Below, piece by piece: positions 4,502 through 59,764 of a stretch of DNA of 64,000 nt. Within the stretch, counting starts at the first letter, position 1, and each line of letters begins with the position of its first letter. Both the position numbers and the translations under genes were made by a program. The notes under the pieces are model-generated. The model searched no databases, was not told where the DNA came from, and saw nothing but the letters and a program-made list of their open reading frames with translations. Source of the stretch: a virus; IMG/VR virus record IMGVR_UViG_3300030085_004215, positions 1 through 64,000 of that record; one strand, given 5' to 3'.

Positions 4502-7500
4502 TTACTCCACTTTTAATGCGGATTCACCTGATTCCTTAACTACAAGTTTTGTAGGTGAGGTTATTGTTATTTCTACAGGGTCATTACCGTCTATAGTATT
4601 TTTCTTTGTTAATGTTATTGGTTTATAGTATACCCTAAACAAACTACTGTCATATGATACACTTTGAAATTCTGCTGGATGAAAAGATGCACTATAAGGA
4701 TTATCTATTGAAGCACTTAGTGATGAAGAATAAAATTTTTGTTTTATTTCATTATGTTCACTTATCCTTGAGGAACTAACAAATGTCATGACAGGGTCTG
4801 TTAAATCTGATGTTATACCACCAAAAGTAACACTTGCAGTTGCATATAATGTTCCATATTCAGATTTTGGATTTATTTCATCAAGAACGGTTAATGATGG
4901 TATACCCAAAAATCCAAGTGAACCACTTTCCAAACTATTTAAATTTAATTCACTTTCAAATGTTGGAAATTCTCCATCAATTCTAAAAGGATGTATAGAT
5001 TGACTTAATCTATTTGTTAATTGTACTCCATCTTGAAATTGATTAGCATTTTCAAAAAATGTGTTTTCAAATTCTGGTTGTTTACCAACAACTTCTTTAG
5101 CTCGTTCAAGTATATTAGGTTCTATAAGTATACCAAATGTTGTATTTGCTCTTGCAGGAACCATTGTTTTCAGTTGGTCCCAAATACTTTTATCGTAATA
5201 TTGTAGTATTCTCATATAATCCCAAAAATTATTTGCTCGAGCATACTTTTTCCAATACTCTCTTTGTGTTTTTTCTAATCCTCTATATTCATATTCATAT
5301 TGGTCTCTTGGGTCACCTATTTGGTCATCTATATCAAAATTAGCTAAACTATATATAATATCTTCATTTACTACATCTACAGGTGAAAAGTAAATACCTA
5401 ATTTATTTGAATCTGTAGGTGCGGTATCATATGCAGAAGCCTCTCTTCTTACATTTACAGATAAACCACCAACAAGATTTGTAGGTTCTACTCTTATCTT
5501 TGTTGCGTTTCTTCTACTTGGTCCAATATTAGGTATTTGTAATTCCTCTTTATCAACAACACTTCTAAATGGATTGTCTGCAAATAGAGTTGCATCTGAA
5601 CCAGTTGCATAAGATGTTCTAAATGATTTATCATCTATACCATTTGGAAATGTATCAAGGTTTACATTATCACCCATTGTTAATCTATATTCAAGATTAT
5701 CATACTGAGATGCAGTAGTATTACCATTATATGCCTGTGGTGCTCGAACATGATTATCAAAAACACTTTGTGATAATGGTTCACTCCACAATCTAAATTC
5801 CATCATAGAACCACTAAATAATACCCCTTTCATATGATTAGTATTACTTGCAGCTACTGAACCACTACCACCAATAAATAAATTACCATTTGTTATAAAT
5901 GCATCATTTAGTTTTTGTCCATTAGAAGTTGTACCATCAGTTGTTAAACTCGATGAATCTTGGTAAAGTATAGTTTCTCTCGTTGCATCGTATTGTTTAC
6001 AAGTAAGTTCATACTTAACAGAACTTTTTCTATCTTCATCAGCATTTAAATCAATACCACTACCACTAATACGAGTGAGCATAACACTCCAAAAATCACC
6101 ATTATAGACAGGTAATTCAGATGAAGTTATAAATGTGTCTGTACCAGAACCTGATATTGCAAATTCTAAGTGACCTTTGTTATCTGGTGCACCATTATCT
6201 CTTAAATTAATTGCCCAACTACCCTTTGAACCTGATGCTTGCATTATTTGTTGGTCTTTAGATGGAGTTAAACTTCTATATCTAAACTCTATTGTTTGTG
6301 GTTTTATTGCAGGAGAATCAGTATTAGACCATGGAGCAATCAATATATTATTAGATTTAAAATCTAATGCATAAGTAAATTTTCTTTTTATTTCTGGTGC
6401 AACTCTTTGACCAGGTAAATTTGGTCCACCATACTCACGAACTCTTAATATAGAACTCGGTATACCATAACAATTAATTAACCCCTTTAATGCCCTCACA
6501 GTCCCTTTTGTTTTTAAAAAGAATGGTAGGTTATCAAGTATTCTTTTCCATATTTCTTCTGTCAATGATTCAGATGGAGATTCATTAAGTGCACCACCAT
6601 CAATATCCTTTCCAAGTAGATATGTAGGCACAATTACTAAATCATTACCATTTGTAAATTTTATTCCAAATTGTTTACCAACTTCACGAACTATATCTTT
6701 TGATATTCCCTCAGATACTTTAGATGACCGTTCATTTACATCTGTAAAGTGTCTAACATATGACCATATTTCATCAAATTGTTGACCTATCATATCTGTA
6801 AAATTTAAAAATTCTATATTTGAAGTATCATTTCTTACAAATGCAGGTAATTGATTTACCAACCTATCATCATTTCTTTTATCATAATCTTGTGCGTAAC
6901 TTATTTGAGTATCATACCAACCTGTAAATACAGAATGACTAGTGTGATAAATTGAAGTACTACCTGCAGCACCCTCTTTAGGCCAAGATGAATCATAAAA
7001 TTCTCCAACAGAACTACTTATGTAACTTGATGATACTGTATACAAAAAGTTTTCATATGGGTCAAACGAATTTATTACTCGTCTCTTCAAAGTTTTTTGT
7101 CTATTAAGTGAAGATAAAGAACCAGTAACATTTGTTAAATCATTAATTTCTTTAGTATAATTTTGTATCAACTCTACTTTTTTCTTCATGTTCCTTAATC
7201 GTAATTCTGCACTACCAAACTGATTAAAATTACCGTATGCATAATCAGAAAAATCTATAAACTTTTCTGTTCTTTTTTGATAATCAACATTAACTTGTAC
7301 ATCTAATAAACTACTTGAAAATAATTTATCTGCAATTTCTTGTTGTGTAGTGGTATCTGTACCAACAATATTTTCCATTGTTTGAAAACCAGTACCTTGA
7401 AAATTTATTGGATTATCTTTAGAATTAAAATTTGGAACTCGTAAATATAATAGTTCTTCTAAATCTTCTTCAAATGGAATCATATCTATCGTATCCTCAT

Positions 7501-9445
7501 ATGGTTCCATTTTTTCTTCAACAAAATATACTTTAGAATTTACTTCTATTGTATCGGGTAATGGTTCATATAGTTTTATGTATCTTGCTTTTTTATCTGC
7601 TATATCATTTATTGGAAGTGTACCATCGTTAAGTGGTAACGATTGAGCAGGTGCATCTAAAATCATAATACATAAATGCATTCCATCATCTGATACCATA
7701 TAGTTATTTAATCTTCCTACATTATTTTTACGATAGTTTACATAAAATTCATCAAATACTTTTGTTGGTTGTTGTTCACCACTATGGTCAAATTTAGTTG
7801 CTGCAGCTTCATATGATAAATCCACTCTAACTTTATTGAAATCTAATACTTCAGTAATTGTTGCTACATAATCAATAGGAACTTTATCTGGTAATTCACC
7901 CTCTTCTTCTGCAACAGCCAAAACAACATCTCTTGTAGTTGGAATCATTGGTTCATCTACAATATATTCATTGCCTGGTTCTAATAATCCAGGTTTACCA
8001 AGTGGTGGCTCAAACTCATCTACTGATTCTCTATTATTTGGATTTTGTGCTGGTGGTAAAGCACTTCCACCACCACCTCCACTACTGCCTGGTGAATCCT
8101 CTTGGTCTTCTGCTAATCTTAACATATTGATTCTATTTTTTCTCATTGTTAAGAAATGGTCCATACTTTTCCACTTACCAAGAGTTGCAGAAACAACATT
8201 ATTTGCATAAACCGTATGGTGTTTATCAAGTATTAAATTATATACATCTAATGGTGGGTAATTAAATTGAGTACCTACCTCATCTGCTCTGTACCAACTA
8301 CCTTTATGTTTGATGGGGTGTCCTGCAGTAGTTATAAGATTACCATATTTTGCTAATCCATCACCATATGGTCTATTATCTTTTACTACTTTTTTAACTT
8401 TAGCAAAACCTTGATTGGTTTTTACTTTCATACCAGGTTTCATCATTTTAATAGGTATCATTCTATTATTACTCAATCTGATTTTTGTATCCCCTACAAA
8501 ACATGCACTACCATAATCATCAAATTCATCATAATCTTGATAATCATTATCTGGTGCAGGAGTATCTTGAACTTGTTCTGTTACTGGTATGGAAACTGCT
8601 TCTTTAATTGCTCGTTTTAATTTTCTTCTTATTTCTTTAGCAGCATCTAAAAATCTTCTTCTGGCTTCTTCTTTTGGTCTTGGTCTTTCATCATCTATCT
8701 CATCATCCTCATCATCTTCTACTACAGGTGGTGGGGGTGGTGGTTGAAACTCAAACATTTCTTTAATTACAATTTCTCCACCAACCATCGAATCGGTAAA
8801 TCCTCTTTCATTTGTACCTGGTTCGAATAGTAATACATTAGGGTCTGTTAAATCAAATCTTATTTTACCAGCACCAGGTGTGTTTGTTTTTGGTATATAA
8901 ACCATATCCTTATTGATAGATGCAAAATTTTTCTGATATGGTACATTTTGAATTTGTTGTACATCTACTTTGACTTCTCTTCTATTTGGAGATATTTCTT
9001 TTATAAGATATTTTAATTCTCTTTCAAATAATTCAGAAAGTGGAGTATCTTCACCACCCTTGTCACTAAAAAATCGAGGTCTACCATTAACAACTTGAGT
9101 TCTAACTTTACCCACATGAATAAAACCATCTTCATTAATCAAAACACTCTTTTTTTGTCCAGCTAATCTTCTGAGAAATAAATACTGAACTGTAAATCTA
9201 CCTTGAGAAAATTGACTACCAATACTTCTAAGATGTGTACCAACATCAATATCTATTGTCTGTTCATTAGAAAATGAAACATCTTGGGGTTTTAAAATTT
9301 CATCTCCGTATAAAATATCACCAGATTCATCATATATTAGTAATCGTATAAAATCATTATCATCTTTACCCCAACCACTATATACACTTTTTGGAACATC
9401 TAATTGTAGTTTATCTTCTTCACTTATACCATAGGTTATTGGCAT
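4502..9445 (-). CDS. Giant baseplate/tail protein with Hint and LamG-like domains
   Basis: 1647 residues, the largest gene here. Residues 1-310 precede a Hint (hedgehog/intein) domain: it opens at Cys315 (ACFVGDTKIRL), has the block B histidine at TTAGHP (His376), and the block F motif LDKHHTVYANNVV (His409/His410), ending near residue 424. The terminal His-Asn of a splicing intein is absent, so N-terminal cleavage or thioester chemistry is more likely than splicing. A Ser/Gly linker follows (about 445-460). Residues 950-1000 contain LPFFLKTKGTVRALKGL, which resembles tail-baseplate linker proteins, and about 1020-1255 is a LamG/concanavalin-like sandwich suited to glycan contact. It overlaps the S74 gene by 10 bp. 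Specific virion role inferred. Confidence 0.7.
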   Translation of the reverse strand: MPITYGISEEDKLQLDVPKSVYSGWGKDDNDFIRLLIYDESGDILYGDEILKPQDVSFSNEQTIDIDVGTHLRSIGSQFSQGRFTVQYLFLRRLAGQKKSVLINEDGFIHVGKVRTQVVNGRPRFFSDKGGEDTPLSELFERELKYLIKEISPNRREVKVDVQQIQNVPYQKNFASINKDMVYIPKTNTPGAGKIRFDLTDPNVLLFEPGTNERGFTDSMVGGEIVIKEMFEFQPPPPPPVVEDDEDDEIDDERPRPKEEARRRFLDAAKEIRRKLKRAIKEAVSIPVTEQVQDTPAPDNDYQDYDEFDDYGSACFVGDTKIRLSNNRMIPIKMMKPGMKVKTNQGFAKVKKVVKDNRPYGDGLAKYGNLITTAGHPIKHKGSWYRADEVGTQFNYPPLDVYNLILDKHHTVYANNVVSATLGKWKSMDHFLTMRKNRINMLRLAEDQEDSPGSSGGGGGSALPPAQNPNNRESVDEFEPPLGKPGLLEPGNEYIVDEPMIPTTRDVVLAVAEEEGELPDKVPIDYVATITEVLDFNKVRVDLSYEAAATKFDHSGEQQPTKVFDEFYVNYRKNNVGRLNNYMVSDDGMHLCIMILDAPAQSLPLNDGTLPINDIADKKARYIKLYEPLPDTIEVNSKVYFVEEKMEPYEDTIDMIPFEEDLEELLYLRVPNFNSKDNPINFQGTGFQTMENIVGTDTTTQQEIADKLFSSSLLDVQVNVDYQKRTEKFIDFSDYAYGNFNQFGSAELRLRNMKKKVELIQNYTKEINDLTNVTGSLSSLNRQKTLKRRVINSFDPYENFLYTVSSSYISSSVGEFYDSSWPKEGAAGSTSIYHTSHSVFTGWYDTQISYAQDYDKRNDDRLVNQLPAFVRNDTSNIEFLNFTDMIGQQFDEIWSYVRHFTDVNERSSKVSEGISKDIVREVGKQFGIKFTNGNDLVIVPTYLLGKDIDGGALNESPSESLTEEIWKRILDNLPFFLKTKGTVRALKGLINCYGIPSSILRVREYGGPNLPGQRVAPEIKRKFTYALDFKSNNILIAPWSNTDSPAIKPQTIEFRYRSLTPSKDQQIMQASGSKGSWAINLRDNGAPDNKGHLEFAISGSGTDTFITSSELPVYNGDFWSVMLTRISGSGIDLNADEDRKSSVKYELTCKQYDATRETILYQDSSSLTTDGTTSNGQKLNDAFITNGNLFIGGSGSVAASNTNHMKGVLFSGSMMEFRLWSEPLSQSVFDNHVRAPQAYNGNTTASQYDNLEYRLTMGDNVNLDTFPNGIDDKSFRTSYATGSDATLFADNPFRSVVDKEELQIPNIGPSRRNATKIRVEPTNLVGGLSVNVRREASAYDTAPTDSNKLGIYFSPVDVVNEDIIYSLANFDIDDQIGDPRDQYEYEYRGLEKTQREYWKKYARANNFWDYMRILQYYDKSIWDQLKTMVPARANTTFGILIEPNILERAKEVVGKQPEFENTFFENANQFQDGVQLTNRLSQSIHPFRIDGEFPTFESELNLNSLESGSLGFLGIPSLTVLDEINPKSEYGTLYATASVTFGGITSDLTDPVMTFVSSSRISEHNEIKQKFYSSSLSASIDNPYSASFHPAEFQSVSYDSSLFRVYYKPITLTKKNTIDGNDPVEITITSPTKLVVKESGESALKVE

Positions 9446-10279: not shown

Positions 10280-11458
10280 TTATCTCACTACTTTAAATAT
10301 ATAATCATCATCATATATCATTGATGTTTGGTCAACACCACTTCCACTAACCACTTTAATTTCAAATCTATAAAATCTTTCTGGTTGAAAACTATTTAAC
10401 CAAACATTCATATAATTACCAGATGAATCACAACTTACAATTGAACCAGTACCAAATGGTATAATAACATCTTCGGTATATGCATCTTTAATAGAGTAAT
10501 ATGTACCATGTTCGAGTTCAACACTTCCACTTGGTAGATATTTTACTGTCAATGCTGCTGGTGTAGTATCAAAAGTTCTTGCAGGATATAATTCTCTACC
10601 TGCAAATCTAAATTTAACTTTAGAGTTTTCTTTGTACTCCTCTTTCATATTTTTAAAGTAAATAGTTAATCTATCTAAATCCGTAGGACTTAGTGCACTC
10701 AAACTACCAGTATTCCAACTTGAATCATCCCATTCAACTTCTAATTTAGGTGGAAATATAGTGTGTGTTTCTCTTGAGAAAAATAACAAATCACCAAGTG
10801 GTGTAGTATTATGTTCATCAGAACCTGTAGCAGTTGTTGGGTCATAAACACAAAATTCACTACCAGTAGTAGGTATATTTTCTCGTTTTAAGATAAATCC
10901 ATTATTAGGAAATATTGAACTTGAATAGATTTGATTTTTAACTAAATCAGTTACATCCATTCTTATGTCTGTAGTTTCGTAACTTAAATTAAAAGATGCC
11001 GATACATTATATTGACTATCTAAACTACTCGTGTACCATGTACCACCTATAGTATCACTTCCACTTACCCATTGTGTTTTTGTAGTAGCATTATCACGAT
11101 ACTTCCAACTAGCACCATTATCAATAGCTGGATTTGCATCTAACCTACCAGTTCCAGCACCCCAACTACCACTTACTATGTAGGCATGTAAAGATTGTGT
11201 TACTGCCAACTCATGTGAACCAGCATCATATAAATTTAAATAGTACTTAGCAGTACTTGGTATCAAACCACTTTGTATGGAAGATGAGATGTAACTATAA
11301 TCAAATTTAATAATTGCTCTTGAAACTGCAACTGTAGTTCCTGCAGTATTTACAAATTTTCTAATTTCAAGTATTTCATCAAGTGCTGTGTTTATTGAGG
11401 AAGATACATTTCCCTCATATAATGTTGTATCAGCAGTTGGGTATTCAAAATAATACAT
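10280..11458 (-). CDS. DNRLRE-like beta-sandwich structural protein
   Basis: 392 residues. The first 240 follow the layout of DNRLRE/CBM96-like domains: repeated T-x-Y-E-G start, SRAIIKFDYSYI, AKYYLNLYDAG, a HAYIVSGSWGAGTG stretch and a NGASWKYRD segment. Such domains bind polysaccharide in other proteins. The C-terminal 140 residues form a second beta-rich region. The stop touches the gp6 gene's neighbourhood: the start (11458) overlaps the gp6 stop by one base. Likely a baseplate-attached adhesin or wedge accessory; carbohydrate binding is inference. Confidence 0.6.
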   Translation of the reverse strand: MYYFEYPTADTTLYEGNVSSSINTALDEILEIRKFVNTAGTTVAVSRAIIKFDYSYISSSIQSGLIPSTAKYYLNLYDAGSHELAVTQSLHAYIVSGSWGAGTGRLDANPAIDNGASWKYRDNATTKTQWVSGSDTIGGTWYTSSLDSQYNVSASFNLSYETTDIRMDVTDLVKNQIYSSSIFPNNGFILKRENIPTTGSEFCVYDPTTATGSDEHNTTPLGDLLFFSRETHTIFPPKLEVEWDDSSWNTGSLSALSPTDLDRLTIYFKNMKEEYKENSKVKFRFAGRELYPARTFDTTPAALTVKYLPSGSVELEHGTYYSIKDAYTEDVIIPFGTGSIVSCDSSGNYMNVWLNSFQPERFYRFEIKVVSGSGVDQTSMIYDDDYIFKVVR

Positions 11459-13428
11459 TAAGAGTCTCCTACTACTCTACCTTGTATATCTGAAGCTGGA
11501 AACTTTAACTCAAATATACATGGGTCGAGTGATGGATAAACAATACCATCTTTGGTTGCAGTGTTTATATCATATACATTTCCACTATAACCATTACTAC
11601 TTCTGTACCTATTTTCAATCACAACCATTTGTTTACTTGGGTTATCATCTTCAGGTGGTACAATACTCTGAACACCATCGGTAAGAGATATTGCAAAAGA
11701 TATATCACTCAACACAATAGGTTGATTTATTTGCCACTTATCAATAATAAAGTGTTGTTTTACTTTATCAATACATTTTGCTAATACTTCTGGTTTATTA
11801 AAACCACTTTTTACAATTATAGAAAATCGAACTGCTATATTAACAATATATGCATCTTTAATATTTATTGCATCTGTAACTAAACGATACTGAGATAAGT
11901 ATATTCTTAAATTTTGTTTTACTGTTTCATTTAACAATGTTAATTTTTTAGTGGCATTAAACCCCAATACATAAAAATTCATTGCTAATGGATTTGGTAT
12001 TGGAGTTACATTTGGTTGTTTTACAATCCTACCCTCTCTAATAACAGTCTGTGTATTTTTTTCAAGTTGTTCATCTTGTATTATAAATACTTTTGCAATA
12101 GCACCATATTTTTGTGGTAATGAATATACACGAGTTACATAATCTTCTTTAGTAACTGCTCTATTTTGTGAATTAAAATATGCAATTGCGTTTAATCTAA
12201 CCTGTTCAGGTGATTCTGCTCCACCACCACCAACTGCAGGTTCAATATTATTTGCTACTAAAGATGCTCGTGTTGAATCGAGAGTATCTACATCTAACCC
12301 ATCATCATTTATTAAAAAATTTACATCACCAAGTTGTGTTATCTCACCACTTACCACATTATCTTCTATCTTACCACCATATGTATATGTTACATTTAAT
12401 GTAATGTTGCTTGGTGCAAGACCATATGTTTTAGTTTTTAAAAAATTACTTGGGTCAAAACTTGTATCAAGTTTAGATATACCAGTACCTAAAGATGAAC
12501 CTACATTATCTGGATTAGGAATCAATTCTTCATCAGCATTAGTACTAACACCAGCACCAAATCGTATTTCCGTTTTACCATCACTTCTAATATATGTTGT
12601 AAATCTACGAGCAGTTTTAACTAATTTAAGTAAAAATGGTGCACTTGTTTTGTTTGTAGACACATCAGGTGAGTTAGCAGCATTATTTTCTATATCATCA
12701 AATACTGTATCTTGTGCTAAAAAAGGAACTTGATACCATTTGTTACCATCATCATCAATACATGAAGTAATTTCAATAACATTTTTTTCGTTTAAAATTA
12801 TTTTATCAAACTTTTTTGCTGCACCAAATGTAAATGTATCAGTTCTTACTTCACCACTCTCAACCATAGCATTTTTATATAATGTATATTCTGTTGGGTC
12901 ATCACCACTAACACTACTTATTACTTCAGTTCGAGGGTCAAGACTTGATGAAAAAGCAAAATTTAAATCATCCATTAATCTAAATTGAGTACCTGAATTT
13001 GATAAAAGAGTACTATTTGCTCTTATAATTGGTGCATAATCTAAATCTGGTCGATAAGTTTCATTAACTTCTTCTGCAGGAACTGTAATACCAAATTCAA
13101 CTTTTGCAGTTGCAGGACTTGATAATTTTGGTTTATATCCAAATGATTGTGCAATCTTAAAAATGTTTTTCTTTTCTTCTGCAGAATGTAATAATGCTTC
13201 ACGATATTGATTATCAATGTAATATGATAATACATCTCCTACATATGAAGCCATTTCAATAAACATCATTCCAGGTGACGCTTCATTAAAATCATTATAT
13301 GCACTTGGATAGTAAGTTTTTGCAAACTCAATTAAATTTTGTCTGATGGATGGAAAATCTCTACCTATATAGGTAACTTCTTTTTTTTCTTTTTTTATAT
13401 TTGTTCCATATTCTACATCTGATGGCAT
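11458..13428 (-). CDS. Baseplate wedge protein gp6-like (baseplate J family)
   Basis: 656 residues, close to the 660 of T4 gp6. The N-terminus has the family hallmark: DFPSIRQNLIEFAKTYYP, then ASPGMMFIEMASYVGDVLSYYIDNQYREALL, i.e. the gp6/gpJ motif. A J-like segment EQVRLNAIAYFNSQNRAVTKEDYVTRVYSLP lies in the middle (about 408-438). gp6 dimers build the hexagonal ring of the baseplate wedges. It is next to the gp25 gene (24 bp gap), the same order as in many contractile-tail phages. Confidence 0.92.
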   Translation of the reverse strand: MPSDVEYGTNIKKEKKEVTYIGRDFPSIRQNLIEFAKTYYPSAYNDFNEASPGMMFIEMASYVGDVLSYYIDNQYREALLHSAEEKKNIFKIAQSFGYKPKLSSPATAKVEFGITVPAEEVNETYRPDLDYAPIIRANSTLLSNSGTQFRLMDDLNFAFSSSLDPRTEVISSVSGDDPTEYTLYKNAMVESGEVRTDTFTFGAAKKFDKIILNEKNVIEITSCIDDDGNKWYQVPFLAQDTVFDDIENNAANSPDVSTNKTSAPFLLKLVKTARRFTTYIRSDGKTEIRFGAGVSTNADEELIPNPDNVGSSLGTGISKLDTSFDPSNFLKTKTYGLAPSNITLNVTYTYGGKIEDNVVSGEITQLGDVNFLINDDGLDVDTLDSTRASLVANNIEPAVGGGGAESPEQVRLNAIAYFNSQNRAVTKEDYVTRVYSLPQKYGAIAKVFIIQDEQLEKNTQTVIREGRIVKQPNVTPIPNPLAMNFYVLGFNATKKLTLLNETVKQNLRIYLSQYRLVTDAINIKDAYIVNIAVRFSIIVKSGFNKPEVLAKCIDKVKQHFIIDKWQINQPIVLSDISFAISLTDGVQSIVPPEDDNPSKQMVVIENRYRSSNGYSGNVYDINTATKDGIVYPSLDPCIFELKFPASDIQGRVVGDS

Positions 13429-13451: not shown

Positions 13452-13970
13452 CTAAACTCCAGTCGTGGATGTTATTGTGACCGTTTCTATTGCTGTTGGG
13501 TCACTAACATCAACTGTAAAGGTTAATCTTACAATAATTCTGTTTTTATCAACTTCATCCATTACAGATTCAACCTCAATAAGCGTGATATAGGATAGTT
13601 GTTTACCTACTACTTCACGAATTTCTTCTTCTATTCTATTTGTTAAGTCTGGTGTTGCCTGTTCAAAAAGTAAATCAGTCAAATTACTACCAAAGTCAGG
13701 TAATCCTAGCCGTTCACCTTTTCTTGTTAATAACACATTTTTTAAATTTGATTTTGCTTGTTCTTTTAAGGTTCTAGCTCGAGGAAAAAAACCAGTAGCA
13801 CCAACTTCATATGTTAGTGGAAAGGTTAATCCAAAGAAAGATTTTTCATCTGCATTTAAATGATATATTGCAGGATTATCATACTCATCAGGATTTTCAG
13901 AAAATTCAATGAATCTTTGAATTTGTTCCTCGGTAGGATTATCAAAATCAAATAATATTGGGTCTGGCAC
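13452..13970 (-). CDS. Baseplate wedge subunit gp25-like
   Basis: 172 residues of the GPW/gp25 family. The conserved core is seen at about 80-150: LKEQAKSNLKNVLLTRKGERLGLPDFGSNL, then LLFEQATPDLTNRIEEEIREVVGKQLSYI. T4 gp25 joins the wedge core and primes sheath assembly. The protein is somewhat longer than T4 gp25 (132) because of an N-terminal extension of about 50 residues rich in acidic and aromatic residues. Adjacent to gp6. Confidence 0.9.
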   Translation of the reverse strand: MPDPILFDFDNPTEEQIQRFIEFSENPDEYDNPAIYHLNADEKSFFGLTFPLTYEVGATGFFPRARTLKEQAKSNLKNVLLTRKGERLGLPDFGSNLTDLLFEQATPDLTNRIEEEIREVVGKQLSYITLIEVESVMDEVDKNRIIVRLTFTVDVSDPTAIETVTITSTTGV

Positions 13971-14477: not shown

Positions 14478-14969
14478 CTAAAATACTTGAAACCCCATAC
14501 CCACTAATGGTGGTATTGGGGGTGTTGAAATGAATACTAATTGTGAATGATATGTTTCAAAAGCTGTGGTTAATTTATCTAAAAATTCATCTACACTTTG
14601 TGGTGCAATTGAAGCTGGTGTATCAATATATACTCCTGAAAATCCTGGTGTAGTTACAATTGGTGGTGCACCTGATGCTGCAACTGCACCAGCCCAATAA
14701 GAGGTTAAACCTAAATCAACTGCTCTACTCAATGGAAATCTACCATTACTTTTAAAACAAACTTTCATCATATTTGTTAAACCTGTTGGAAATAAAGACT
14801 TCATTGGAACTGGTGGCAATGGTGGTGCACCAACTGTATTTGCTTTAGTAAATCCAATTTTAATGGTGTTATCATATTCTTCACCAATTACTTCTGCCAT
14901 AGTTTCCCCACTTTCAAAGCCTTCATTATATCTTAACTTGTACCTAGCTTTAAATATACCAAACGCCAT
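14478..14969 (-). CDS. Baseplate-region structural protein, unknown
   Basis: 163 residues; not recognised. It has a proline-rich patch (GAPPLPPVPMKSLFPTG, about 47-63) and a Gly/Ala/Pro segment around 95-125. No enzymatic motif, no signal peptide. Its start overlaps the stop of the 400-residue hub/spike candidate by one base, so translation of the two is probably coupled, which suggests a role beside the hub. Confidence 0.55.
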   Translation of the reverse strand: MAFGIFKARYKLRYNEGFESGETMAEVIGEEYDNTIKIGFTKANTVGAPPLPPVPMKSLFPTGLTNMMKVCFKSNGRFPLSRAVDLGLTSYWAGAVAASGAPPIVTTPGFSGVYIDTPASIAPQSVDEFLDKLTTAFETYHSQLVFISTPPIPPLVGMGFQVF

Positions 14970-16171
14970 TATATCGTCTTATTTACACTAAGAATCCCAC
15001 CTTTACCAGATTCGATTCCTAAAATTTGTTTAATGTTTGATTGAAGTTTAATACCACCACTTGGATTTACTGCTACTGGACCTGTAGGTGCAATTAAACC
15101 CGTAGTGATTAACTTCATAATTTCTTCTAACAGAGTAATCAATTCTTCACCCAATACTAATGAAAATTTTGCATCAAATGCACCTAATTTTGTAACGGGT
15201 GTTTCAGTAACAACTTCTGCAACTGATGATAGTGATATATTATTGTTACTAAATAATCCGATATCTCCACTATTTTTTGTATTCAAAATAATTTTATCGG
15301 AGTTTATTAATACAGATTTACCATCATATGGTTCAGGAATTAATTTTGATACATGACCAGGTGTAAACTTTAATACTTGATTTGTAGTTAGATATACACT
15401 TGAACCATCTGTATCTAATTCTTCTTCGACAGGTTTTTTTGGGTCGTCTGCTGATAATCTTGTTTGTCCTACATTCAATAATATATTACCCGAGTTTTCT
15501 CCCTCGACACCAGTAACCTTTGTTATATCACTTCCTAATCGTATAGTATTTTCAAATCTTCCCTCTATTATTAAATCACCCTCATTTGGTAATAATCTAT
15601 TTGCAGGAGATTTTTGTGTTATATCTATACCCATTTCTTGACTTATATCATCATCATTAGAATATGAAAGTGTATCACTTAACGGATTACCCTTTTCATC
15701 AACCCCATCAGGTATCAATGTACCTTTAATATTACCACTACTAGCTCGATGCATTAAATTTTGTGATGGGTTTCCAAACAGATTTAAAGGACCAGGTGAT
15801 AGATAATAATATTCACCAAAATATTGTGTACCAATCAAAATCTCACCAATAGTGGGTATCATGTTTATATTTGGATTAAATGGTTTGAAATCAAAACATT
15901 CTGAAACATTTTGACCTGCTTGTGAGTGTACAAATCTAGCTCTAACTCCACCAATATAACTGAAATCTGTTTGACCATCTAAAGTTTTAGGAAATTCTGC
16001 AAACTCTGATACGATGTGTACTTCAAGAACTTCAATTGGTTCTAATTCAAAAAATAAAGAATCTCCATCAGAAATTTCATGGAGTAATTGCATCTGAGAT
16101 GTAGTAGTCTGCAGACGATTATTTATAGGACCAGTTTTATTGGTATTAGTTTTTTTTATTATTCTTGGCAT
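14969..16171 (-). CDS. Putative baseplate hub / central spike protein
   Basis: 400 residues. The middle (about 60-130) looks like an OB-fold region of gp5-type hub proteins (VRARFVHS..., PTIGEILIGTQYFGEYYYL). From about 205 to 310 come short repeating hydrophobic/polar strands (GDLIIEGRFENTIRLGSDI, VLINSDKIILNTKNSGDIGLFSNNNISLSS), the pattern of a triple beta-helix needle. No lysozyme domain is present, unlike T4 gp5. Position next to gp25/gp6 supports a hub or spike. Confidence is moderate because the assignment rests on pattern only. Confidence 0.6.
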   Translation of the reverse strand: MPRIIKKTNTNKTGPINNRLQTTTSQMQLLHEISDGDSLFFELEPIEVLEVHIVSEFAEFPKTLDGQTDFSYIGGVRARFVHSQAGQNVSECFDFKPFNPNINMIPTIGEILIGTQYFGEYYYLSPGPLNLFGNPSQNLMHRASSGNIKGTLIPDGVDEKGNPLSDTLSYSNDDDISQEMGIDITQKSPANRLLPNEGDLIIEGRFENTIRLGSDITKVTGVEGENSGNILLNVGQTRLSADDPKKPVEEELDTDGSSVYLTTNQVLKFTPGHVSKLIPEPYDGKSVLINSDKIILNTKNSGDIGLFSNNNISLSSVAEVVTETPVTKLGAFDAKFSLVLGEELITLLEEIMKLITTGLIAPTGPVAVNPSGGIKLQSNIKQILGIESGKGGILSVNKTI

Positions 16172-16548
16172 TAATTTAATTTAGCTGTAATGTTATCACT
16201 TTCATCTTGTAACTCTTCAACAGTACTATGAATATTATCCATTAATTGTTGTTTTTCTTTTTCAGTTAATCCAAACTCACCCTCAGATTCCCCTTTTACA
16301 GAACCTTGTGCTAATCGTTGTACGATTGTTGCAAGTTTAACTAACTGTTCATCATTCTTTACATTGATTTCTAAATACTCTTTCAACATAGGAATTATTT
16401 GAACTGCAGTATCACCATCTTTAATAAATGATGTTACCTCTTTCATTAACACTTCTAATTGTGTTTTATTTCGCTTTGAATTATCATATATATCTTTGAA
16501 TACATCTGATAGGGTTTTACCCTCAAAAATTTCATAATCTGCTGACAT
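16171..16548 (-). CDS. Small helical protein, first of the virion operon
   Basis: 125 residues, predicted all-helical and acidic, ending in a Glu/Lys/Gln-rich coiled-coil-like stretch (LTEKEKQQLMDNIHSTVEELQDE). Not recognised. Its stop overlaps the hub candidate's start by one base. It is the first gene of the minus-strand structural run, 23 bp after a candidate late box, so it may be a tail-assembly or regulatory protein. Confidence 0.55.
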   Translation of the reverse strand: MSADYEIFEGKTLSDVFKDIYDNSKRNKTQLEVLMKEVTSFIKDGDTAVQIIPMLKEYLEINVKNDEQLVKLATIVQRLAQGSVKGESEGEFGLTEKEKQQLMDNIHSTVEELQDESDNITAKLN

Positions 16549-16704: not shown

Positions 16705-16926
16705 ATGAAGGAAGTCATAACACTCGTCAAAGGATATATCGATGATATTGCTCATCTAATGCTATCCTTTGTTGCCATTGGAGCTATTGGAGAAGTAATT
16801 TTCGGTAGTGGAGTCTTTGGCGTAAATGTTATTGGTAACCTAACATCTATCATAAACACATTCGGCGAATCCGGTTTCGCTGGACTAGTCGCATTGTTGG
16901 TGTTGGTGGGTTTATTCCGTAAGTAG
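16705..16926 (+). CDS. Small two-helix membrane protein, isolated plus-strand gene
   Basis: 73 residues with two hydrophobic segments (about 16-38 and 57-71) and a short polar middle. The ribosome site GGGAG stands upstream of the ATG. The gene is on the opposite strand to its neighbours, and visibly richer in G and C than the surrounding DNA, with many strong codons, hinting at high expression. It has its own terminator at 16949-16973. Possibilities are a holin, another lysis membrane protein, or an abundant virion-associated hydrophobic protein. No decisive motif. Confidence 0.7.
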   Translation: MKEVITLVKGYIDDIAHLMLSFVAIGAIGEVIFGSGVFGVNVIGNLTSIINTFGESGFAGLVALLVLVGLFRK

Positions 16927-16948: not shown

Positions 16949-16973
16949 GGGGGAGTCTATCCGAGGCTCCCCC
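16949..16973. terminator. Bidirectional terminator between convergent genes
   Basis: A 9-bp stem (GGGGGAGTC with GGCTCCCCC, one G-U pair) and a 7-base loop. It lies 23 bp after the plus-strand gene and overlaps the last codons of the GH6 gene on the minus strand. On the minus strand it is followed by TATTGTGTTTT, a weak U-tract. Confidence 0.8.
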
Positions 16974-17790
16974 TTATCAAATCCACAGTTTTTTGAGCAT
17001 TGAATCTTCCAGCTTTTGGCCAACCGTTTACAGCACCATCACTTTCACCTGGAGTTTTAATCCAAAGGTATGCATCACAATAATCTGAATTGGTTTTAGT
17101 AGTGGGCAATGGTCCAAGTTTCATGTTTGGAGGATTAAATGTTTCATCTACCTCATTACCATTACGAGAGGTATCAATCACATAACTACATCCAATGTTA
17201 TTTGCAATATAATCACCATAATTTATACATTTATCTGTAGTTACAAAATTACTTGTATTAAGACTAAATCCTTTTATAGATTCATTCATAAATATATTTA
17301 AATAATCTACTGCTTCCATCTTTTTTAACCAATATGGATGACCAATATCAAGATAAATCAAAGCATTTGATTGAGTTAATATTTTTAGTGATTCTATTAT
17401 AAGATATTTTCTATCCCTAAAATCTTGTGTACTCATGTTACTCATATGAGGAATTGCATCAGGTTCAAAAATTACTAAGGGTTGATAATCACCTATACCG
17501 TCTGTAACATTTCTTATATATTTTAGATAATCGTTTGGGTGTAATCCACCTTTAGAATGTCCACCCACATCCCTACCAGTAATCGAATATAAAACAATGG
17601 TAGGTTGTGTAGGAAACGCATGTTTACATAATCTATGTATTCTTGATGATAATCTCTTTATTGGTTTTTTTATATTCTTTTCTACATACCAAACTGCGTG
17701 AGGTTGAGATGTAATATAACCAAGTTCAGGATAATTTATTATGTTATGTTTTCTATAATTCCACGAATGTTGAAATAGTATCAAAACCAA
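16957..17790 (-). CDS. Glycoside hydrolase family 6 (cellulase-like)
   Basis: 277 residues, essentially a bare GH6 catalytic domain; no signal peptide, linker or carbohydrate-binding module. GH6 enzymes are inverting beta-1,4-glucanases. Visible motifs in order: AVWYV (32-36), VLYSITGRDVGG with Asp74, VIFEPDAIP with the proton donor Asp111, YLDIGHPYWL (146-155), SLNTSNF (176-182), YVIDTSRNGNE (203-213), NPPNMKLGP, and LWIKTPGESDG with Asp251. These match the donor and the proposed base region of Cel6 enzymes. The start overlaps the late sigma gene by 10 bp. Without export signal it probably reaches glucan upon lysis or in the virion. Substrate unproven. Confidence 0.85.
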   Translation of the reverse strand: MVLILFQHSWNYRKHNIINYPELGYITSQPHAVWYVEKNIKKPIKRLSSRIHRLCKHAFPTQPTIVLYSITGRDVGGHSKGGLHPNDYLKYIRNVTDGIGDYQPLVIFEPDAIPHMSNMSTQDFRDRKYLIIESLKILTQSNALIYLDIGHPYWLKKMEAVDYLNIFMNESIKGFSLNTSNFVTTDKCINYGDYIANNIGCSYVIDTSRNGNEVDETFNPPNMKLGPLPTTKTNSDYCDAYLWIKTPGESDGAVNGWPKAGRFNAQKTVDLIRGSLG

Positions 17791-18500
17791 CTACCAGTCA
17801 ATTTGGTATCTATTGAACCTGTACTAAGAAATCGTTTGTGTAGGTTTACATGATGTTTTTTCATCACATTAATCACACGAGTAATATGTTGTGTATTACT
17901 GCCAGTCATTTCTCTAATTAAAATGTACAAAGCTTTTTTGTTAAAGTTTTCAATGTTATGTCTCATATCAATCAATTCAACAACTGAATTAGCAACATCT
18001 AAATCTTTTTTTCTTTTGAAAACAGTAGTCATATTACTTTTCCAATATTGAGCTAGTGATTCAACATAATCAAATTTTTGAACTTTATTTTCACGAAATC
18101 TAGCTTCAGAGACAGGGTCTCGTTTGTAATCCGATGTTTCTTCAGAGGTGTGTTGTTTTAATCTTTTATAATTACCATTATTGTGAAGAATCAAATAATT
18201 CTTAGCAACAATACTAAAGTATGAGAATGCCTTTCCCTTACCCTCTGTAAATTTATGAATGTTCATATATAAAAAGGATACTACCTCGTGTTTTACATCT
18301 TCTGATGGGACATCAAAATAATAAAACTTAAATGTATGAATAATGTTTTCACACAACTTTTCAAACGGAACTCGTATATGTTCATTGTAAATCCGTTCTT
18401 TCATATAAGGTCTATCTTCTTTATTCAACCGAATAATCGCATTCTCAGTATCTTGGTTAAAATAATATCGTGGTGAACCTTTTTTTGCTTTTCTTGGCAT
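17781..18500 (-). CDS. Late-transcription sigma factor (T4 gp55-like)
   Basis: 239 residues. N-terminal PRYYFNQDTENAIIRLNKE, then a region-2-like stretch EDVKHEVVSFLYMNIHKFTEGKGKAFSYFSIVAKNYLILHNN (about 65-108), the arrangement of phage sigma factors for late genes. It would direct host RNA polymerase to late promoters such as the structural operon. The C-terminal third is basic. It overlaps the GH6 gene (10 bp) and the upstream 83-residue gene (1 bp), so these are translated as a unit. Confidence 0.8.
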   Translation of the reverse strand: MPRKAKKGSPRYYFNQDTENAIIRLNKEDRPYMKERIYNEHIRVPFEKLCENIIHTFKFYYFDVPSEDVKHEVVSFLYMNIHKFTEGKGKAFSYFSIVAKNYLILHNNGNYKRLKQHTSEETSDYKRDPVSEARFRENKVQKFDYVESLAQYWKSNMTTVFKRKKDLDVANSVVELIDMRHNIENFNKKALYILIREMTGSNTQHITRVINVMKKHHVNLHKRFLSTGSIDTKLTGSWF

Positions 18501-24795: not shown

Positions 24796-24845
24796 AAATA
24801 AATATCTCCATTTCTTTTTAAAATACAACATTTTTTTATTTTTTG

Positions 24846-25248
24846 TGGAGCTGGGGGGATTCGAACCCCCGTCCTGCATATATTTTATAAATAGTCATTC
24901 ACAGCTTAGTTTGGTTCCAAATCGGTAGTCACCAACAACCCACCATGTCTCACTTTACTCAGAGTGGTTTAACTGATGAAATTTTATACTCTATCACACG
25001 AGTGGATGTCTAACTTATTTTATGACCGAGTGTTAGACAACTCAGTATCTTAAGCCGCGTAGGCGTAAGATGGTTGGGAATCACCGATTGGTAATTCTGA
25101 GTAATCATACTCAGTCAAATGCCAATCTATCACCAACCCGTCTAGCGATTGTTCGCCAATTGAGTTTCGTTGAGTTTTATTTAAGAGTCTACTCAAACTC
25201 TGCTGCACTAACTTACAAAACGATACCAGTCGATTTCCAGTCAGCCCC
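24846..25248 (-). ncRNA. ssrA: tmRNA (ssrA), phage-encoded
   Basis: About 403 nt. The 5' end GGGGCTGACTGG pairs with the 3' end CAGCTCC plus discriminator A: a 7-bp acceptor stem with the G3-U70 alanine identity pair. The T-arm GGGGG-TTCGAAT-CCCCC is intact; CCA is not encoded. In between lies a reading frame ending SQPSYAYAA-stop, in the usual place and with the AA ending of a degradation tag; if it starts after the first pseudoknot near GEQSLDG the tag would be about 35 residues, unusually long. It rescues stalled ribosomes. The acceptor stem is the same as in the phage tRNA-Ala. Confidence 0.88.
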
Positions 25249-26584: not shown

Positions 26585-27565
26585 TTATAAATATGCTCTT
26601 GGTGATGGTAAATCACTATAGTGGTCTTTGAAGTGAATTGATTTATATTTATCAACAGCCAATTCCTTGTGTTTTGCCTCTACCATAATATCTACATCAT
26701 TACCATAAGTATTAATGAAATCATAAACATAATCAGAATGTGCTTGTGGTCTTATCTTATCATCTTCTTGTTCAATACTCCTACTCTCAGAGTAATGAAC
26801 AACTGGCACAATACCCTTAGGCCATGTAGACATAGCCATCTCCAATGCTTCTTGTTCTGATAAATCACCAGTACAAAATTTGTGATGATGATAATCGAAT
26901 ACAATAGGTACACCAACTTTTTTGTATATACCCTCATATAAATCTTTTACACTATACATAGAGGCTTTATCATCATTTTCTAATGTCAATCTACTACTAA
27001 CACTTTCTGGTAACTTGTAAAAATTCTTACAGAATCTATCCATGGCAGATTCTTTATCTCCATACACACCACCAAGATGAATGTTAATCTTGTTGTATGG
27101 TGTTCTTGATAATCCCATCATATCCATAACATCACCATGTATTGTTAAGTCCTTTACACAATTATCAACAACATGGTCGTGTGGTGATACCAATACATTG
27201 AATGGGCCTGGATGCGTTGTTAATCTAAGTTTATGTGTGTTTGCCATAATACCTGCTGAACGGAGATATGTTTTTATCTCATCGATATCTTTCATATCAT
27301 CCCATTCATATTCGGTTTTCCACGGTACAATATCACTACTCATTCGATAAAACTCATATCCATTTAAGATATTCCACTGTACGATTGAGTTCAAATCTTT
27401 TACATTTTGAAGTGTTAGTTCACTAGCGTAATCAACACCCTTCTCATCAAATGTTCTGCGAATCATACTACGATTTGTAGTGATTGGTTTTGTGCCTTTT
27501 GGTTTATCACCATACTTTGTTGGATAACTAAGTTTCATACTAATACATGCGTAACCTAAATTCAT
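26585..27565 (-). CDS. uvsE: UV-damage endonuclease (UvsE/UvdE)
   Basis: 326 residues with a TIM-barrel UvsE layout: NLGYACISMKL (2-12), SSDIVPW (57-63), HPGPFNVLVSP, NKINIHLGGVYGDKE, RLTLENDD (about 191-198) and VPIVFDYHHHK, all carrying the metal-binding His/Glu/Asp residues of the family. It nicks DNA 5' of UV photoproducts in repair. Useful to a phage in sunlit water. No promoter of the 18-bp family directly upstream; it follows small membrane genes. Confidence 0.92.
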   Translation of the reverse strand: MNLGYACISMKLSYPTKYGDKPKGTKPITTNRSMIRRTFDEKGVDYASELTLQNVKDLNSIVQWNILNGYEFYRMSSDIVPWKTEYEWDDMKDIDEIKTYLRSAGIMANTHKLRLTTHPGPFNVLVSPHDHVVDNCVKDLTIHGDVMDMMGLSRTPYNKINIHLGGVYGDKESAMDRFCKNFYKLPESVSSRLTLENDDKASMYSVKDLYEGIYKKVGVPIVFDYHHHKFCTGDLSEQEALEMAMSTWPKGIVPVVHYSESRSIEQEDDKIRPQAHSDYVYDFINTYGNDVDIMVEAKHKELAVDKYKSIHFKDHYSDLPSPRAYL

Positions 27566-31865: not shown

Positions 31866-32696
31866 TTAGTTTTTCTCCCAATATCCCAATTTAGGTGCTA
31901 TATAAGTGGGTCTGTCTAACCACTTACTTAAAGTAACTTCTGCTTCCACTTCGGGTGAAATATCAAAGTCATTATATCTATGTAGTAAATCTGCAACTAT
32001 AGGATGTCTAACAACATCTCCTAAATCAAATCTACAAAAACCACATCCATAAACACCAGTAAATCTCTTAACACTATCCTCCAAACCATTATCCGTTTTG
32101 GTTCGTAAATCACTCTGTTGCAAATCTCCACTAACGATATATTTAGAACCCAAGCCAATTCTCGTTAGAAAAGTTTTGATTTGTGATGGTGTAGAGTTTT
32201 GTGCCTCATCTAACATTACAATTTTATTCTGTAGTGTTAAACCTCTCATGTATGCAAGTGGAATAACTTTTATTATTCCAGCTTTTCTCAATACATCCAA
32301 TCTCTGCTTACCGATTATCTGTTCCATATTATAATATACTGATTGCATAAATGGTTCAGTTTTCTCATCAATATCACCAGGTAAATATCCTATCCTTTCA
32401 CCGTCTACCTCAACCATAGGTTTGGTGACAATAATACCGTCAAAGTTAGAATTTTTATCTGCAATACTCTGTAATGCCCAATATGTTGCAACATATGTCT
32501 TACCACAACCTGCAGGCCCAACACAAAATGTAATAGTATTGGTATCAATATTATCCCAAAACTTTTGTTGATTTCGTGTTTTTGCTTTAAAATCCCATTT
32601 GATTCTTTTCATTTGAGACAGTGCTTGTCGATGGTTTGCACATTCTTGATTACTTACAACCTTTGTAATAGTTTCAACTTTTCGTTTTCTACTCAT
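31866..32696 (-). CDS. phoH: PhoH-like ATPase
   Basis: 276 residues. Walker A GPAGCGKT (60-67), Walker B IVMLDEAQN, and the PhoH-typical KPMVEVDGERIGYLPGD and SGDLQQSDL stretches. PhoH proteins are P-loop NTPases, possibly linked to RNA metabolism, and are very common in marine phages. The ORF begins after a gap of about 70 bp with no box of the 18-bp family. Confidence 0.92.
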   Translation of the reverse strand: MSRKRKVETITKVVSNQECANHRQALSQMKRIKWDFKAKTRNQQKFWDNIDTNTITFCVGPAGCGKTYVATYWALQSIADKNSNFDGIIVTKPMVEVDGERIGYLPGDIDEKTEPFMQSVYYNMEQIIGKQRLDVLRKAGIIKVIPLAYMRGLTLQNKIVMLDEAQNSTPSQIKTFLTRIGLGSKYIVSGDLQQSDLRTKTDNGLEDSVKRFTGVYGCGFCRFDLGDVVRHPIVADLLHRYNDFDISPEVEAEVTLSKWLDRPTYIAPKLGYWEKN

Positions 32697-47550: not shown

Positions 47551-49074
47551 TTATAAAACTTTAATTCCATATCGTTTTTCAAATCCAATACCATCATTAT
47601 GGGTATTCACAATTGGCATACCCTTTATATTAAGTGAGGTATTGAGTAACATCGGGCAACCTGTCTTCTTGTAAAATTCATTAATGAGATTATAAAAGTT
47701 CGGGTTATCATCCTTACTAACAGTCTGTACTCGTGATGTGTTATCAACATGACATATAGCAGGATATAAATCAGGTTGTTTACATTTAGCAACGAACTGC
47801 ATATACTGAGACTTCCTAACTGGCATATCGAATATTTCGTGTGCGTGTTCCTCAAGTACTGCAGGTGCAAAAGGTCTGAACTCCTGTCGTTTCTTAATCT
47901 TATTAACTCTATCTTTGATATCATCACCACGCGGGTCTGCCAACAAAGAACGATTACCTAACGCTCGAGGACCAAACTCCGCTCGACCACTCGCCACACC
48001 AACGATATCACCTTTAAGAAGCTTTTTCAAAGTTTGCTTAATTGGATATTCTCCTTGTATATCATAACCCAAGAAAGTATTCTTCCAATCGAGATGTTTA
48101 CCCAATACATATGCAGCACATCCCAACGATGAACCACCATCACCGGGATTTGGAATAATCCATATATTGGGATATCTTCTCGCCAATAAGGAATTCGCTA
48201 CACAATTTAATGCAACTCCACCACCATATACAAAGTTATCTATATTGGGTAACATGGATTGTGCTAACTCAAATACTTTAAGTATCTCTTCTTCACATAT
48301 TGCTTGTACATTTGCTGCTATATCAAACTTCCACTTATCACTTCCATCATCTGGATAACACTTAGGATTCCAATCCATACATCCTCGGTGTAGGTTTTGT
48401 TTAAACTCTACAATACCCTCATTGAAGAATTCATCGCGTATCTCTTTTTGTAATGTGGTATCTAATGTTCCCCATCCTGCCATACCCATAAGTATGTATT
48501 CATCTTCTTGAGGTTTTAAACCCAACCTCTGTGTCATAGCACTATACCATAACCCTAATGAATGTGGATATTGACGATTCCACAACTTTTTAAATTGGGT
48601 TTCCCCATTGTGGTTTGTTCTGATATGCCATATAGTGGTGGTATCCCATTCTCCTATTGCATCAATCATCACACCAATACTCTCTCTATAGGGAGAGGTA
48701 AAATATGCTGCACTCGCGTGTGATAAATGATGAGATATGTAATGGTTGGGTTTAAGATTAAATTGTTTTAAATACTTACTTGGTAGGTTCTGAAGAGTAA
48801 AGGTATCTTGAGTTTGACCTGCCCATAGTTGTCGTGATTTCTTTAACCAAGGCTGTTCAAACCACACGACTGTATCCCAATCCCCATAACGGCGTAATTG
48901 AGATAGTAGTTGTGGATTTAATAACTCATCATTTTTTATTTCTGAGTTTCGTTCACTATGGCCTGCAAACCTTATATCGGTATCGTGTATAAGTGCAGCA
49001 GTAGCATCATGATTTAAACCAGTTAATCCAAGTATTCTTTTGTTTTGATTGGGTTTGGTTATGTAACATTTCAT
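47551..49074 (-). CDS. NodU/TobZ-family carbamoyltransferase
   Basis: 507 residues. GLNHDATAAL (19-28) and HHLSHASAAY (115-124) belong to the YgjD-like carbamoyl-AMP domain, YGGGVALNCVANS and RAEFGPRALGNRSLLADPR...RQEFRPFAPAVL to the C-terminal part. Known members transfer carbamoyl to hydroxyl groups of nodulation factors or antibiotics, and one phage-linked type forms 5-carbamoyloxymethylcytosine. With the hydroxymethylase-like gene at 21930, DNA carbamoylation is a reasonable hypothesis. Not in one operon with it. Confidence 0.9.
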   Translation of the reverse strand: MKCYITKPNQNKRILGLTGLNHDATAALIHDTDIRFAGHSERNSEIKNDELLNPQLLSQLRRYGDWDTVVWFEQPWLKKSRQLWAGQTQDTFTLQNLPSKYLKQFNLKPNHYISHHLSHASAAYFTSPYRESIGVMIDAIGEWDTTTIWHIRTNHNGETQFKKLWNRQYPHSLGLWYSAMTQRLGLKPQEDEYILMGMAGWGTLDTTLQKEIRDEFFNEGIVEFKQNLHRGCMDWNPKCYPDDGSDKWKFDIAANVQAICEEEILKVFELAQSMLPNIDNFVYGGGVALNCVANSLLARRYPNIWIIPNPGDGGSSLGCAAYVLGKHLDWKNTFLGYDIQGEYPIKQTLKKLLKGDIVGVASGRAEFGPRALGNRSLLADPRGDDIKDRVNKIKKRQEFRPFAPAVLEEHAHEIFDMPVRKSQYMQFVAKCKQPDLYPAICHVDNTSRVQTVSKDDNPNFYNLINEFYKKTGCPMLLNTSLNIKGMPIVNTHNDGIGFEKRYGIKVL

Positions 49075-58288: not shown

Positions 58289-58527
58289 CGCTTTTTTACT
58301 CTTAATTTCTCTATGAAACTTAAAAACTCTTCTATACTATAAGTAGTACCCTGGTCATCGAAAATACTAAAATTTTCTAATGATTCTGGTTGGTTGTGAA
58401 TCAGATTGTGTAGTGCAAGCATACCATCTCCTGCATACCAAGTTCCTAAACTCTCTTCACCTAAAATATTAGAATCAAACATTAAATTTTCTTTAGATTC
58501 ATTTTTCCCTAATATGAAAAACGTCAT
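58285..58527 (-). CDS. Hypothetical protein
   Basis: 80 residues, mixed helix, ending in a basic KLRVKKR. Overlaps the glycosyltransferase gene by 29 bp. Not recognised. Confidence 0.5.
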   Translation of the reverse strand: MTFFILGKNESKENLMFDSNILGEESLGTWYAGDGMLALHNLIHNQPESLENFSIFDDQGTTYSIEEFLSFIEKLRVKKR

Positions 58528-59764
58528 TTACCATCCCCTCTTCAAGTGGTTTCACTCTTCTAATTTCAACATCAAATATATCTATCTCAAATCTTCCTTC
58601 TTCACCCGAATCAGAGAGTATATTTGATAAATTTTCAATAATATCTCTACTATAGTTCGTTATTCTATCACAATCAAATCTTAAAATAATATCATTATCT
58701 ACTTCCGAATGATGTGTCTTGATTTTTTTTGATAAATCGTACAATGTATTCTGTTGTTCTGAACTTATGTATTTATTTACACCATAACCTTTATGTCCAA
58801 CCCAATCTCCATAAATTGTGGTACACCACGGTTCTAAATATTCTAAATTCTGTAAATTACAATTCTCTACCACAAAACCTATATCATATACTTTAGGTAT
58901 GACTGGATGTAACCATTCATCATGAGTTATTATTGCACCCCATTTTCTAATAAAGTTTCGTGTACTCCGTTGGTTCTGAGCCAACCACTCCGATGATTCT
59001 CTACCCTTCATAAAAACTTGACCTGCAGGATTTCTAATTGCACCATCTTTGAATCTACTACCTCTACAAGTCATATGATACACAAACCCTTTCCAAGTCT
59101 GTATCAACTCGTATCCTGCCAAAAGAAATCTGTTGAATATATCAGAGTCCTCTTTGGATTGTGGTGCAAATAGTGGGTCATGTCCACCAACAAAATCCCA
59201 ATCCTTTTTCATTATGGCCCATGGTGCAAATATTCCTTTTGAAATCTCTTGATTGAGAGATAATGGCCCGTATAACAAACCATCCTTACCAGTTTGGATA
59301 TCATCAACAAACTTTAATAATTCAGTTTCTTTAAACTCCTCTGGTTCTATTCCGAAATCTTCTAATATTTTTTCTTTACCATCTGGATGTAATGGTGGTT
59401 CTATTCTTGTTAGTGATACGACAGTTCCATCTTTAATAAGTTTATCTATCTGTACATCTGAATTAGGACAGAGATACATATCTGCATGAAATATCATAAC
59501 TATATCATTACTTGAATACTCATTTATTAATGTATCATATAGAATAGTATGTCCTAATCTTTCTGGACCTGGATTGACATGTAATCTAACCTTTTTATCA
59601 GTTTTCATAATTTCCTCAACCCACTCAACTGTCCCATCTGTACTTGCATCACTTGCAATACAAATCTCGTGTTCTATAGATTGGTTCCTACGAATACTAT
59701 TATATGCCTGTTTTAAATATTTTAAGTTATTCCTACTTGGTAATATAAAACTTATAGGTCTCAT
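58499..59764 (-). CDS. Family 2 glycosyltransferase
   Basis: 421 residues. GT-A fold: FILPSRNNLKYLKQAYNSI (6-24), IASDASTDGTVEWVEE (36-51) and FHADMYL (DxD-like, about 92-98). The C-terminal 170 residues are an extra domain. It probably decorates host or virion glycan. Shares four bases with the next gene. Confidence 0.85.
   Translation of the reverse strand: MRPISFILPSRNNLKYLKQAYNSIRRNQSIEHEICIASDASTDGTVEWVEEIMKTDKKVRLHVNPGPERLGHTILYDTLINEYSSNDIVMIFHADMYLCPNSDVQIDKLIKDGTVVSLTRIEPPLHPDGKEKILEDFGIEPEEFKETELLKFVDDIQTGKDGLLYGPLSLNQEISKGIFAPWAIMKKDWDFVGGHDPLFAPQSKEDSDIFNRFLLAGYELIQTWKGFVYHMTCRGSRFKDGAIRNPAGQVFMKGRESSEWLAQNQRSTRNFIRKWGAIITHDEWLHPVIPKVYDIGFVVENCNLQNLEYLEPWCTTIYGDWVGHKGYGVNKYISSEQQNTLYDLSKKIKTHHSEVDNDIILRFDCDRITNYSRDIIENLSNILSDSGEEGRFEIDIFDVEIRRVKPLEEGMVNDVFHIREK

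What the first reader, a model, noticed from the sequence alone, without database searches (positions are those of the whole stretch)
16957..17790. Phage-encoded GH6 cellulase tied to the late sigma factor
A complete GH6 catalytic domain with Asp74, Asp111 and Asp251 in the conserved places lies in a tailed-phage genome, without a signal peptide, 10 bp coupled to the gp55-like gene. GH6 enzymes are known from bacteria and fungi; I know of no described role in a phage of this type. It may degrade bacterial cellulose or another beta-1,4-glucan at lysis or in biofilm.
Basis: partly seen in the sequence, partly recalled or inferred. Interest (0 to 1): 0.8.

Follow-up and report, generated by a model that had tools for sequence, protein, structure and literature searches.

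The report
Cellulase gene carried by marine-type phages
Large uncultured tailed phages carry an intact, cellulase-type (GH6) enzyme that has its own phage-only branch and has lost the features bacteria use to secrete it, so it probably digests a cellulose-like polymer after the host bursts.

Summary
The ORF at 16957-17790 (-) is a complete GH6 catalytic domain: Pfam PF01341 E=3e-37, and the predicted fold matches M. tuberculosis Cel6 at TM 0.84. D74, D111, D148 and D251 are present, and there is no signal peptide.

It is not a one-off. IMG/VR scans found at least 178 viral contigs with relatives. All 95 distinct full-length members compared keep the catalytic residues, under purifying selection. 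In the tree the phage proteins form one branch (support 100/100), at most 45% identical to bacterial GH6. Among 50,697 deposited phage records, no member of this branch was found.

New trait: the four cysteines that are near-invariant in secreted bacterial GH6 (two disulfides) are lost. One pair is gone from every member compared; the other is complete in only 13 of 95. This fits folding in the cytoplasm without export.

The tie to the sigma factor is positional. In relatives with the same sigma gene the slot is empty or holds a methyltransferase, endonuclease VII or other cargo. Elsewhere GH6 follows peptide deformylase or sits in a replication module. The gp55 resemblance is weak.

Most likely it is a cargo endo-beta-1,4-glucanase released at lysis against the host's or biofilm's beta-glucan. 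Substrate, host and timing are inferred, not shown.

The parts
16957..17790 (-). GH6 gene. ORF opens at TTG 17790; the likelier start is TTG 17784 (275 aa, TTGA 4-nt overlap with the upstream stop)
   Evidence: start inferred from relatives' GTGA overlaps
17569..17571 (-). codon of Asp74 (aligned with T. fusca Cel6A D79)
   Evidence: invariant in 95 of 95 distinct phage members
17458..17460 (-). codon of Asp111 (aligned with T. fusca D117, catalytic acid by literature knowledge)
17347..17349 (-). codon of Asp148 (YLDIG motif)
17038..17040 (-). codon of Asp251 (PGESDG motif)
17781..18500 (-). upstream gene, putative sigma factor with weak gp55 resemblance; overlaps the GH6 start
16705..16926 (+). 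73-aa hydrophobic protein on the opposite strand; downstream border of the cargo slot, kept in nearly all relatives with or without GH6
   Evidence: no Pfam or PHROG family
16171..16548 (-). conserved 125-aa gene beyond the cargo slot
14969..16171 (-). conserved 400-aa gene leading into the baseplate module
   Evidence: no family match
13452..13970 (-). baseplate wedge subunit (PHROG 261/43)
11458..13428 (-). baseplate wedge subunit (PHROG 10646/219)

Best explanation
The gene encodes a working endo-type GH6 beta-1,4-glucanase belonging to a phage-only branch of GH6. It is a cargo gene placed behind a phage gene (a putative sigma gene here) and read from a 4-nt stop/start overlap. The protein folds in the host cytoplasm: it has no signal peptide and has lost the disulfides of secreted GH6. 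It is probably freed at lysis, where it would cut beta-1,4-glucan (cellulose or similar) in the host's matrix so that progeny escape or spread. Shown here: family, fold, intact catalytic residues, selection, single phage clade, disulfide loss, cargo-slot behaviour. Inferred: activity, substrate, release at lysis, benefit.
For: GH6 by profile, sequence and fold. All five checked catalytic-site residues (Y68, D74, D111, D148, D251) are invariant in 95 distinct phage members, and pairwise dN/dS has a median of 0.15 (0.08-0.12 for the closest lineage-A pairs). The phage members form one clade, 100/100. Cysteine columns present in 99-100% of 80 bacterial GH6: the first pair is absent from 59 of 59 phage members; of the second, one cysteine remains in 51% and its partner in 5%. 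On 95 members the second pair is complete in only 13, and no cysteine lies at the RDC position. Bacterial relatives carry secretion or lipoprotein N-termini and linkers. The phage members are single-domain, about 280 aa. The model's closest structures are endoglucanases of about 290 residues rather than the longer cellobiohydrolases. Cargo slot. Base composition is fully adapted: GC 0.313 against 0.321 for the window.
Against: No activity, virion or expression data exist. Host and its glycans are unknown. In lineage B the gene lies in a DNA-replication module (ThyX, gp32-like SSB, UvsX, exonuclease) and in lineage C beside peptide deformylase and other metabolic genes, not in lysis or tail modules, so late expression is not assured for the whole family. 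No holin or endolysin was identified beside it.
Confidence: 0.55

Rival explanations
1. Virion-borne depolymerase: the enzyme is carried in or on the particle and clears beta-glucan at adsorption, like the cellulases proposed for Erwinia phage S6.
For: In the window the gene lies upstream of the baseplate module. Phage S6 uses cellulose as first receptor and carries GH5 and GH48 enzymes (PMC9544554). Gilgamesh gp72 GH6 sits in a tail operon.
Against: Single domain with no anchoring module, whereas the S6 enzymes and Gilgamesh gp72 have extra N-terminal domains. In lineages B and C the gene is outside structural modules.
Confidence: 0.17
2. Auxiliary metabolic gene: it supplies glucose or cellobiose from beta-glucan to the infected cell or community.
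For: Neighbours in lineage C include peptide deformylase, glutaredoxin, methyltransferases and a desaturase. GH6 has been listed as a viral AMG in sediments (PMC8725595).
Against: No export route during infection: no signal peptide, and the disulfides are lost. Sugar released after lysis would not feed the phage.
Confidence: 0.1
3. Repurposed intracellular glycosidase: the GH6 fold now acts in the cytoplasm on another beta-linked glycan, for example host glycan precursors or a defence-related sugar.
For: Cytoplasmic adaptation, replication-module position in lineage B, and partial loss of the Trp/Cys pair before NPPGR in lineages A and B.
Against: The sugar-binding tryptophans W34 and W154 and K245 are invariant in all 59 members checked, as expected for a glucan cleft.
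Confidence: 0.13
4. Recent host-gene capture or contaminating bacterial DNA with no phage function.
For: GH6 is otherwise a cellular family.
Against: At least 178 viral contigs, conserved phage neighbours, phage capsid and terminase genes on the same contigs, monophyly and purifying selection.
Confidence: 0.02

Closest known systems
Bacterial secreted GH6 endoglucanases (M. tuberculosis Cel6 Rv0062, T. fusca Cel6A)
   Same: Fold, catalytic aspartates, sugar-binding tryptophans, domain length
   Different: Phage clade lacks signal peptide, linker and CBM, and has lost the two conserved disulfides; at most 45% identity
Streptomyces phage Gilgamesh gp72 (annotated glycoside hydrolase, GH6 by match)
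   Same: A GH6 domain in a phage
   Different: Groups with bacterial GH6, not the phage clade (long branch); extra N-terminal domain; lies in a tail operon
Erwinia phage S6 cellulases gp094 (GH48) and gp095 (GH5)
   Same: Phage enzymes aimed at beta-1,4-glucan; gp095 degrades carboxymethylcellulose (PMC9544554)
   Different: Different GH families and multi-domain with possible virion attachment; found in Schitoviridae
GH6 entries in viral AMG lists (Mariana Trench and Aral Sea viromes)
   Same: GH6 in viral contigs (PMC8725595, PMC9948696)
   Different: Listed only; in the passages read, no clade, context, residue or selection analysis. Their relation to this clade was not tested

Membership tests
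Glycoside hydrolase family 6 | Profile match above curated cut-off over nearly the whole domain | tested here: met
   129.4 bits against 27, profile 20-298/305
Glycoside hydrolase family 6 | GH6 distorted barrel fold | tested here: met
   TM 0.84 to 1up0; the top hits, including all of the best 35, are GH6 structures or GH6-derived scaffolds
Glycoside hydrolase family 6 | Catalytic Asp residues and active-site Tyr | tested here: met
   Y68, D74, D111, D148, D251 in 95/95
Glycoside hydrolase family 6 | Inverting hydrolysis of beta-1,4-glucan | not testable with these tools
   needs enzyme assay
Secreted bacterial GH6 endoglucanase | Signal peptide and two conserved disulfides | tested here: not met
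   Cys columns lost; no signal peptide by inspection
Virion-associated polysaccharide depolymerase | Anchor or tailspike domain, or presence in virion | tested here: inconclusive
   no extra domain; virion content not testable here
T4 gp55-type late sigma factor (neighbour gene) | Sequence or fold match to gp55 or sigma-70 region 2 | tested here: inconclusive
   no library match; hhalign score 26.6 against at most 21.9 in 150 shuffles; model pLDDT 59

The most novel reading that the evidence does not exclude
A phage-exclusive, cytoplasmically adapted branch of GH6 cellulases is shared across unrelated large tailed phages (Bacteroidota-phage-like and PA5oct-like lineages) and forms a general phage weapon against a cellulose-like matrix that is widespread among their hosts.
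Probability: 0.35. Interest if true: 0.75.

Novelty: new variant of a known kind. Interest (0 to 1): 0.6.

Why it matters
Phage enzymes against beta-1,4-glucan are known from few cases and other families. A conserved phage-only GH6 branch implies that many bacteria hit by large phages wrap themselves in a cellulose-like polymer, and it offers compact, disulfide-poor cellulases that should express easily. It makes a direct test possible: does the matrix limit phage release, and does GH6 relieve it?

Tried and rejected
(1) Functional link to the sigma gene: rejected because the slot is variable. (2) Holin partner: the 73-aa hydrophobic gene is kept where GH6 is absent, so it is not a specific partner. 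(3) MT836874 'phage' GH6: rejected as bacterial; its neighbours include TonB-receptor-like and AraC-like proteins and it groups with bacterial GH6. (4) Apparent loss of the sigma gene in L012-L015, L017 and L024: an artefact of ORF picking; translation shows it intact in L013 and L017. (5) Host from portal family PF07230: no match anywhere, uninformative. (6) Sigma identity by structure: model too poor. (7) Viral structure library: no GH6 match at E<0.001.

Full report
What is there. The ORF at 16957-17790 (-) is a complete GH6 catalytic domain. It matches Pfam Glyco_hydro_6 at E=3.4e-37, M. tuberculosis Cel6 at E=1.9e-40, and the GH6 fold at TM 0.84/0.80. W34, Y68, D74 and D111 align with T. 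fusca W41, Y73, D79 and D117. The likelier start is TTG 17784, because relatives use a GTGA overlap at the same point. The setting is a tailed phage: baseplate wedge genes lie downstream, and the record is a 120,405-base virus contig.

How common it is. Protein searches of 50,697 deposited phage records found only Streptomyces phage Gilgamesh gp72 (two records) and one bacterial-looking contig mislabelled as phage. PHROGs and the viral structure library BFVD have no match. IMG/VR behaves differently: two alignment-driven scans found 129 and then 178 viral contigs encoding relatives. A scan of 84,980 bacterial and archaeal species genomes returned only bacterial GH6, at most 42% identical in the best segment. 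The sampling habitats of the IMG/VR contigs could not be checked with these tools; 'marine-type' rests on the cultured relatives and on my own recollection of the dataset numbers.

One phage clade. In a maximum-likelihood tree the 33 phage representatives form a single group with 100/100 support and a long stem. Gilgamesh gp72 falls among bacterial proteins, though on a long branch. The phage group splits into lineages A (window type) plus B, and lineage C.

Still an enzyme, no longer a secreted one. Of 95 distinct full-length members, all keep Y68, D74, D111, D148 and D251, and pairwise dN/dS has a median of 0.15. W34, W154, K245 and E249 were invariant in the 59 members first checked. The four cysteines that 99-100% of 80 bacterial GH6 share are lost. 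The first pair is gone from all 59 members checked. In the second pair one cysteine survives in about half and its partner in 5%; on 95 members the pair is complete in only 13, and no member has a cysteine at the RDC position. Bacterial relatives have lipoprotein or linker N-termini; the phage ones are bare domains of about 280 aa. This fits folding in the reducing cytoplasm. It is an inference, but one resting on two independent features.

The sigma link. The upstream gene (17781-18500) has no family match. A profile comparison with T4 gp55 gives a score of 26.6 against a maximum of 21.9 for 150 shuffles, so 'gp55-like' is plausible and unproven. In 78 IMG/VR loci with a 75-100% identical sigma gene, 22 have GH6 behind it, 53 do not and 3 could not be judged. 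Where GH6 is missing, the slot is short and empty or carries an N6/N4 DNA methyltransferase (L226, L251), endonuclease VII (L234), lipoprotein-like genes (L231, L243) or unknown genes (L228, L247). GH6 is therefore cargo in a variable slot. Co-transcription with the sigma gene is likely from the overlap; functional dependence is not indicated.

Other contexts. In lineage B the gene follows a conserved 140-aa gene of unknown function and neighbours ThyX, gp32-like SSB, UvsX and a 5'-3' exonuclease. The B capsid protein is 52-59% identical to those of an uncultured 484-kb phage, Microcystis phage Mel-JY01 and Flavobacterium phage immuto. In lineage C it follows peptide deformylase, directly or with one gene between, in more than 50 loci. 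C contigs carry terminases 58.5% and a capsid protein 70% identical to Pseudomonas phage PA5oct. The window phage itself is nearest to Mel-JY01 and immuto. So one GH6 clade spans two distant groups of large tailed phages. Hosts are not known; Bacteroidota for A and B and Proteobacteria for C are guesses from these relatives.

Function. The most likely role is a lysis-released endo-beta-1,4-glucanase acting on the host or biofilm matrix. Phage S6 shows that cellulose can matter to a phage and that phages can carry cellulases, though S6 uses multi-domain GH5 and GH48 proteins (PMC9544554). A virion role, a metabolic role and a cytoplasmic repurposing remain open. No enzyme, virion or expression evidence exists.

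Literature. In the library searched, GH6 in viruses appears as entries in AMG lists (PMC8725595, PMC9948696). No description of this clade was found. Most subscription journals are not in that library.

Noticed in passing
window 24843-25248 (-): Phage-encoded tmRNA, tag peptide GDSQPSYAYAA (Rfam RF00023, 88 bits).
   Followed up: partly
window 4502-9445 (-): 1647-aa protein beside an S74-chaperone gene contains a Vint/Hint-type self-processing domain at residues 314-423.
   Followed up: no
window 58499-63526 (-): Glycan-biosynthesis-like cassette: GT2, NAD epimerase, DUF2334, plus a carbamoyltransferase at 47551-49074. The phage may remodel surface sugars.
   Followed up: no
slot between 17781 and 16926; loci L226, L251, L234, L243, L231, L228, L247: A variable cargo slot behind the putative sigma gene holds different genes in related phages.
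   Followed up: yes
L254-L315 and others: Recurrent peptide deformylase-GH6 gene pair, sometimes with glutaredoxin or a methyltransferase between, in PA5oct-like uncultured phages.
   Followed up: partly
L034:1942-2370 and lineage B loci: A 140-aa gene of unknown function lies immediately upstream of GH6 in nearly all lineage B loci that extend far enough; no Pfam or PHROG match.
   Followed up: partly
L247:1153-3210, L249:2769-4826: A 686-aa protein without a credible family match (best Pfam E=0.05) occupies the cargo slot.
   Followed up: no
window 26585-27565 (-); 31866-32696 (-): UV-endonuclease UvdE and PhoH genes.
   Followed up: no
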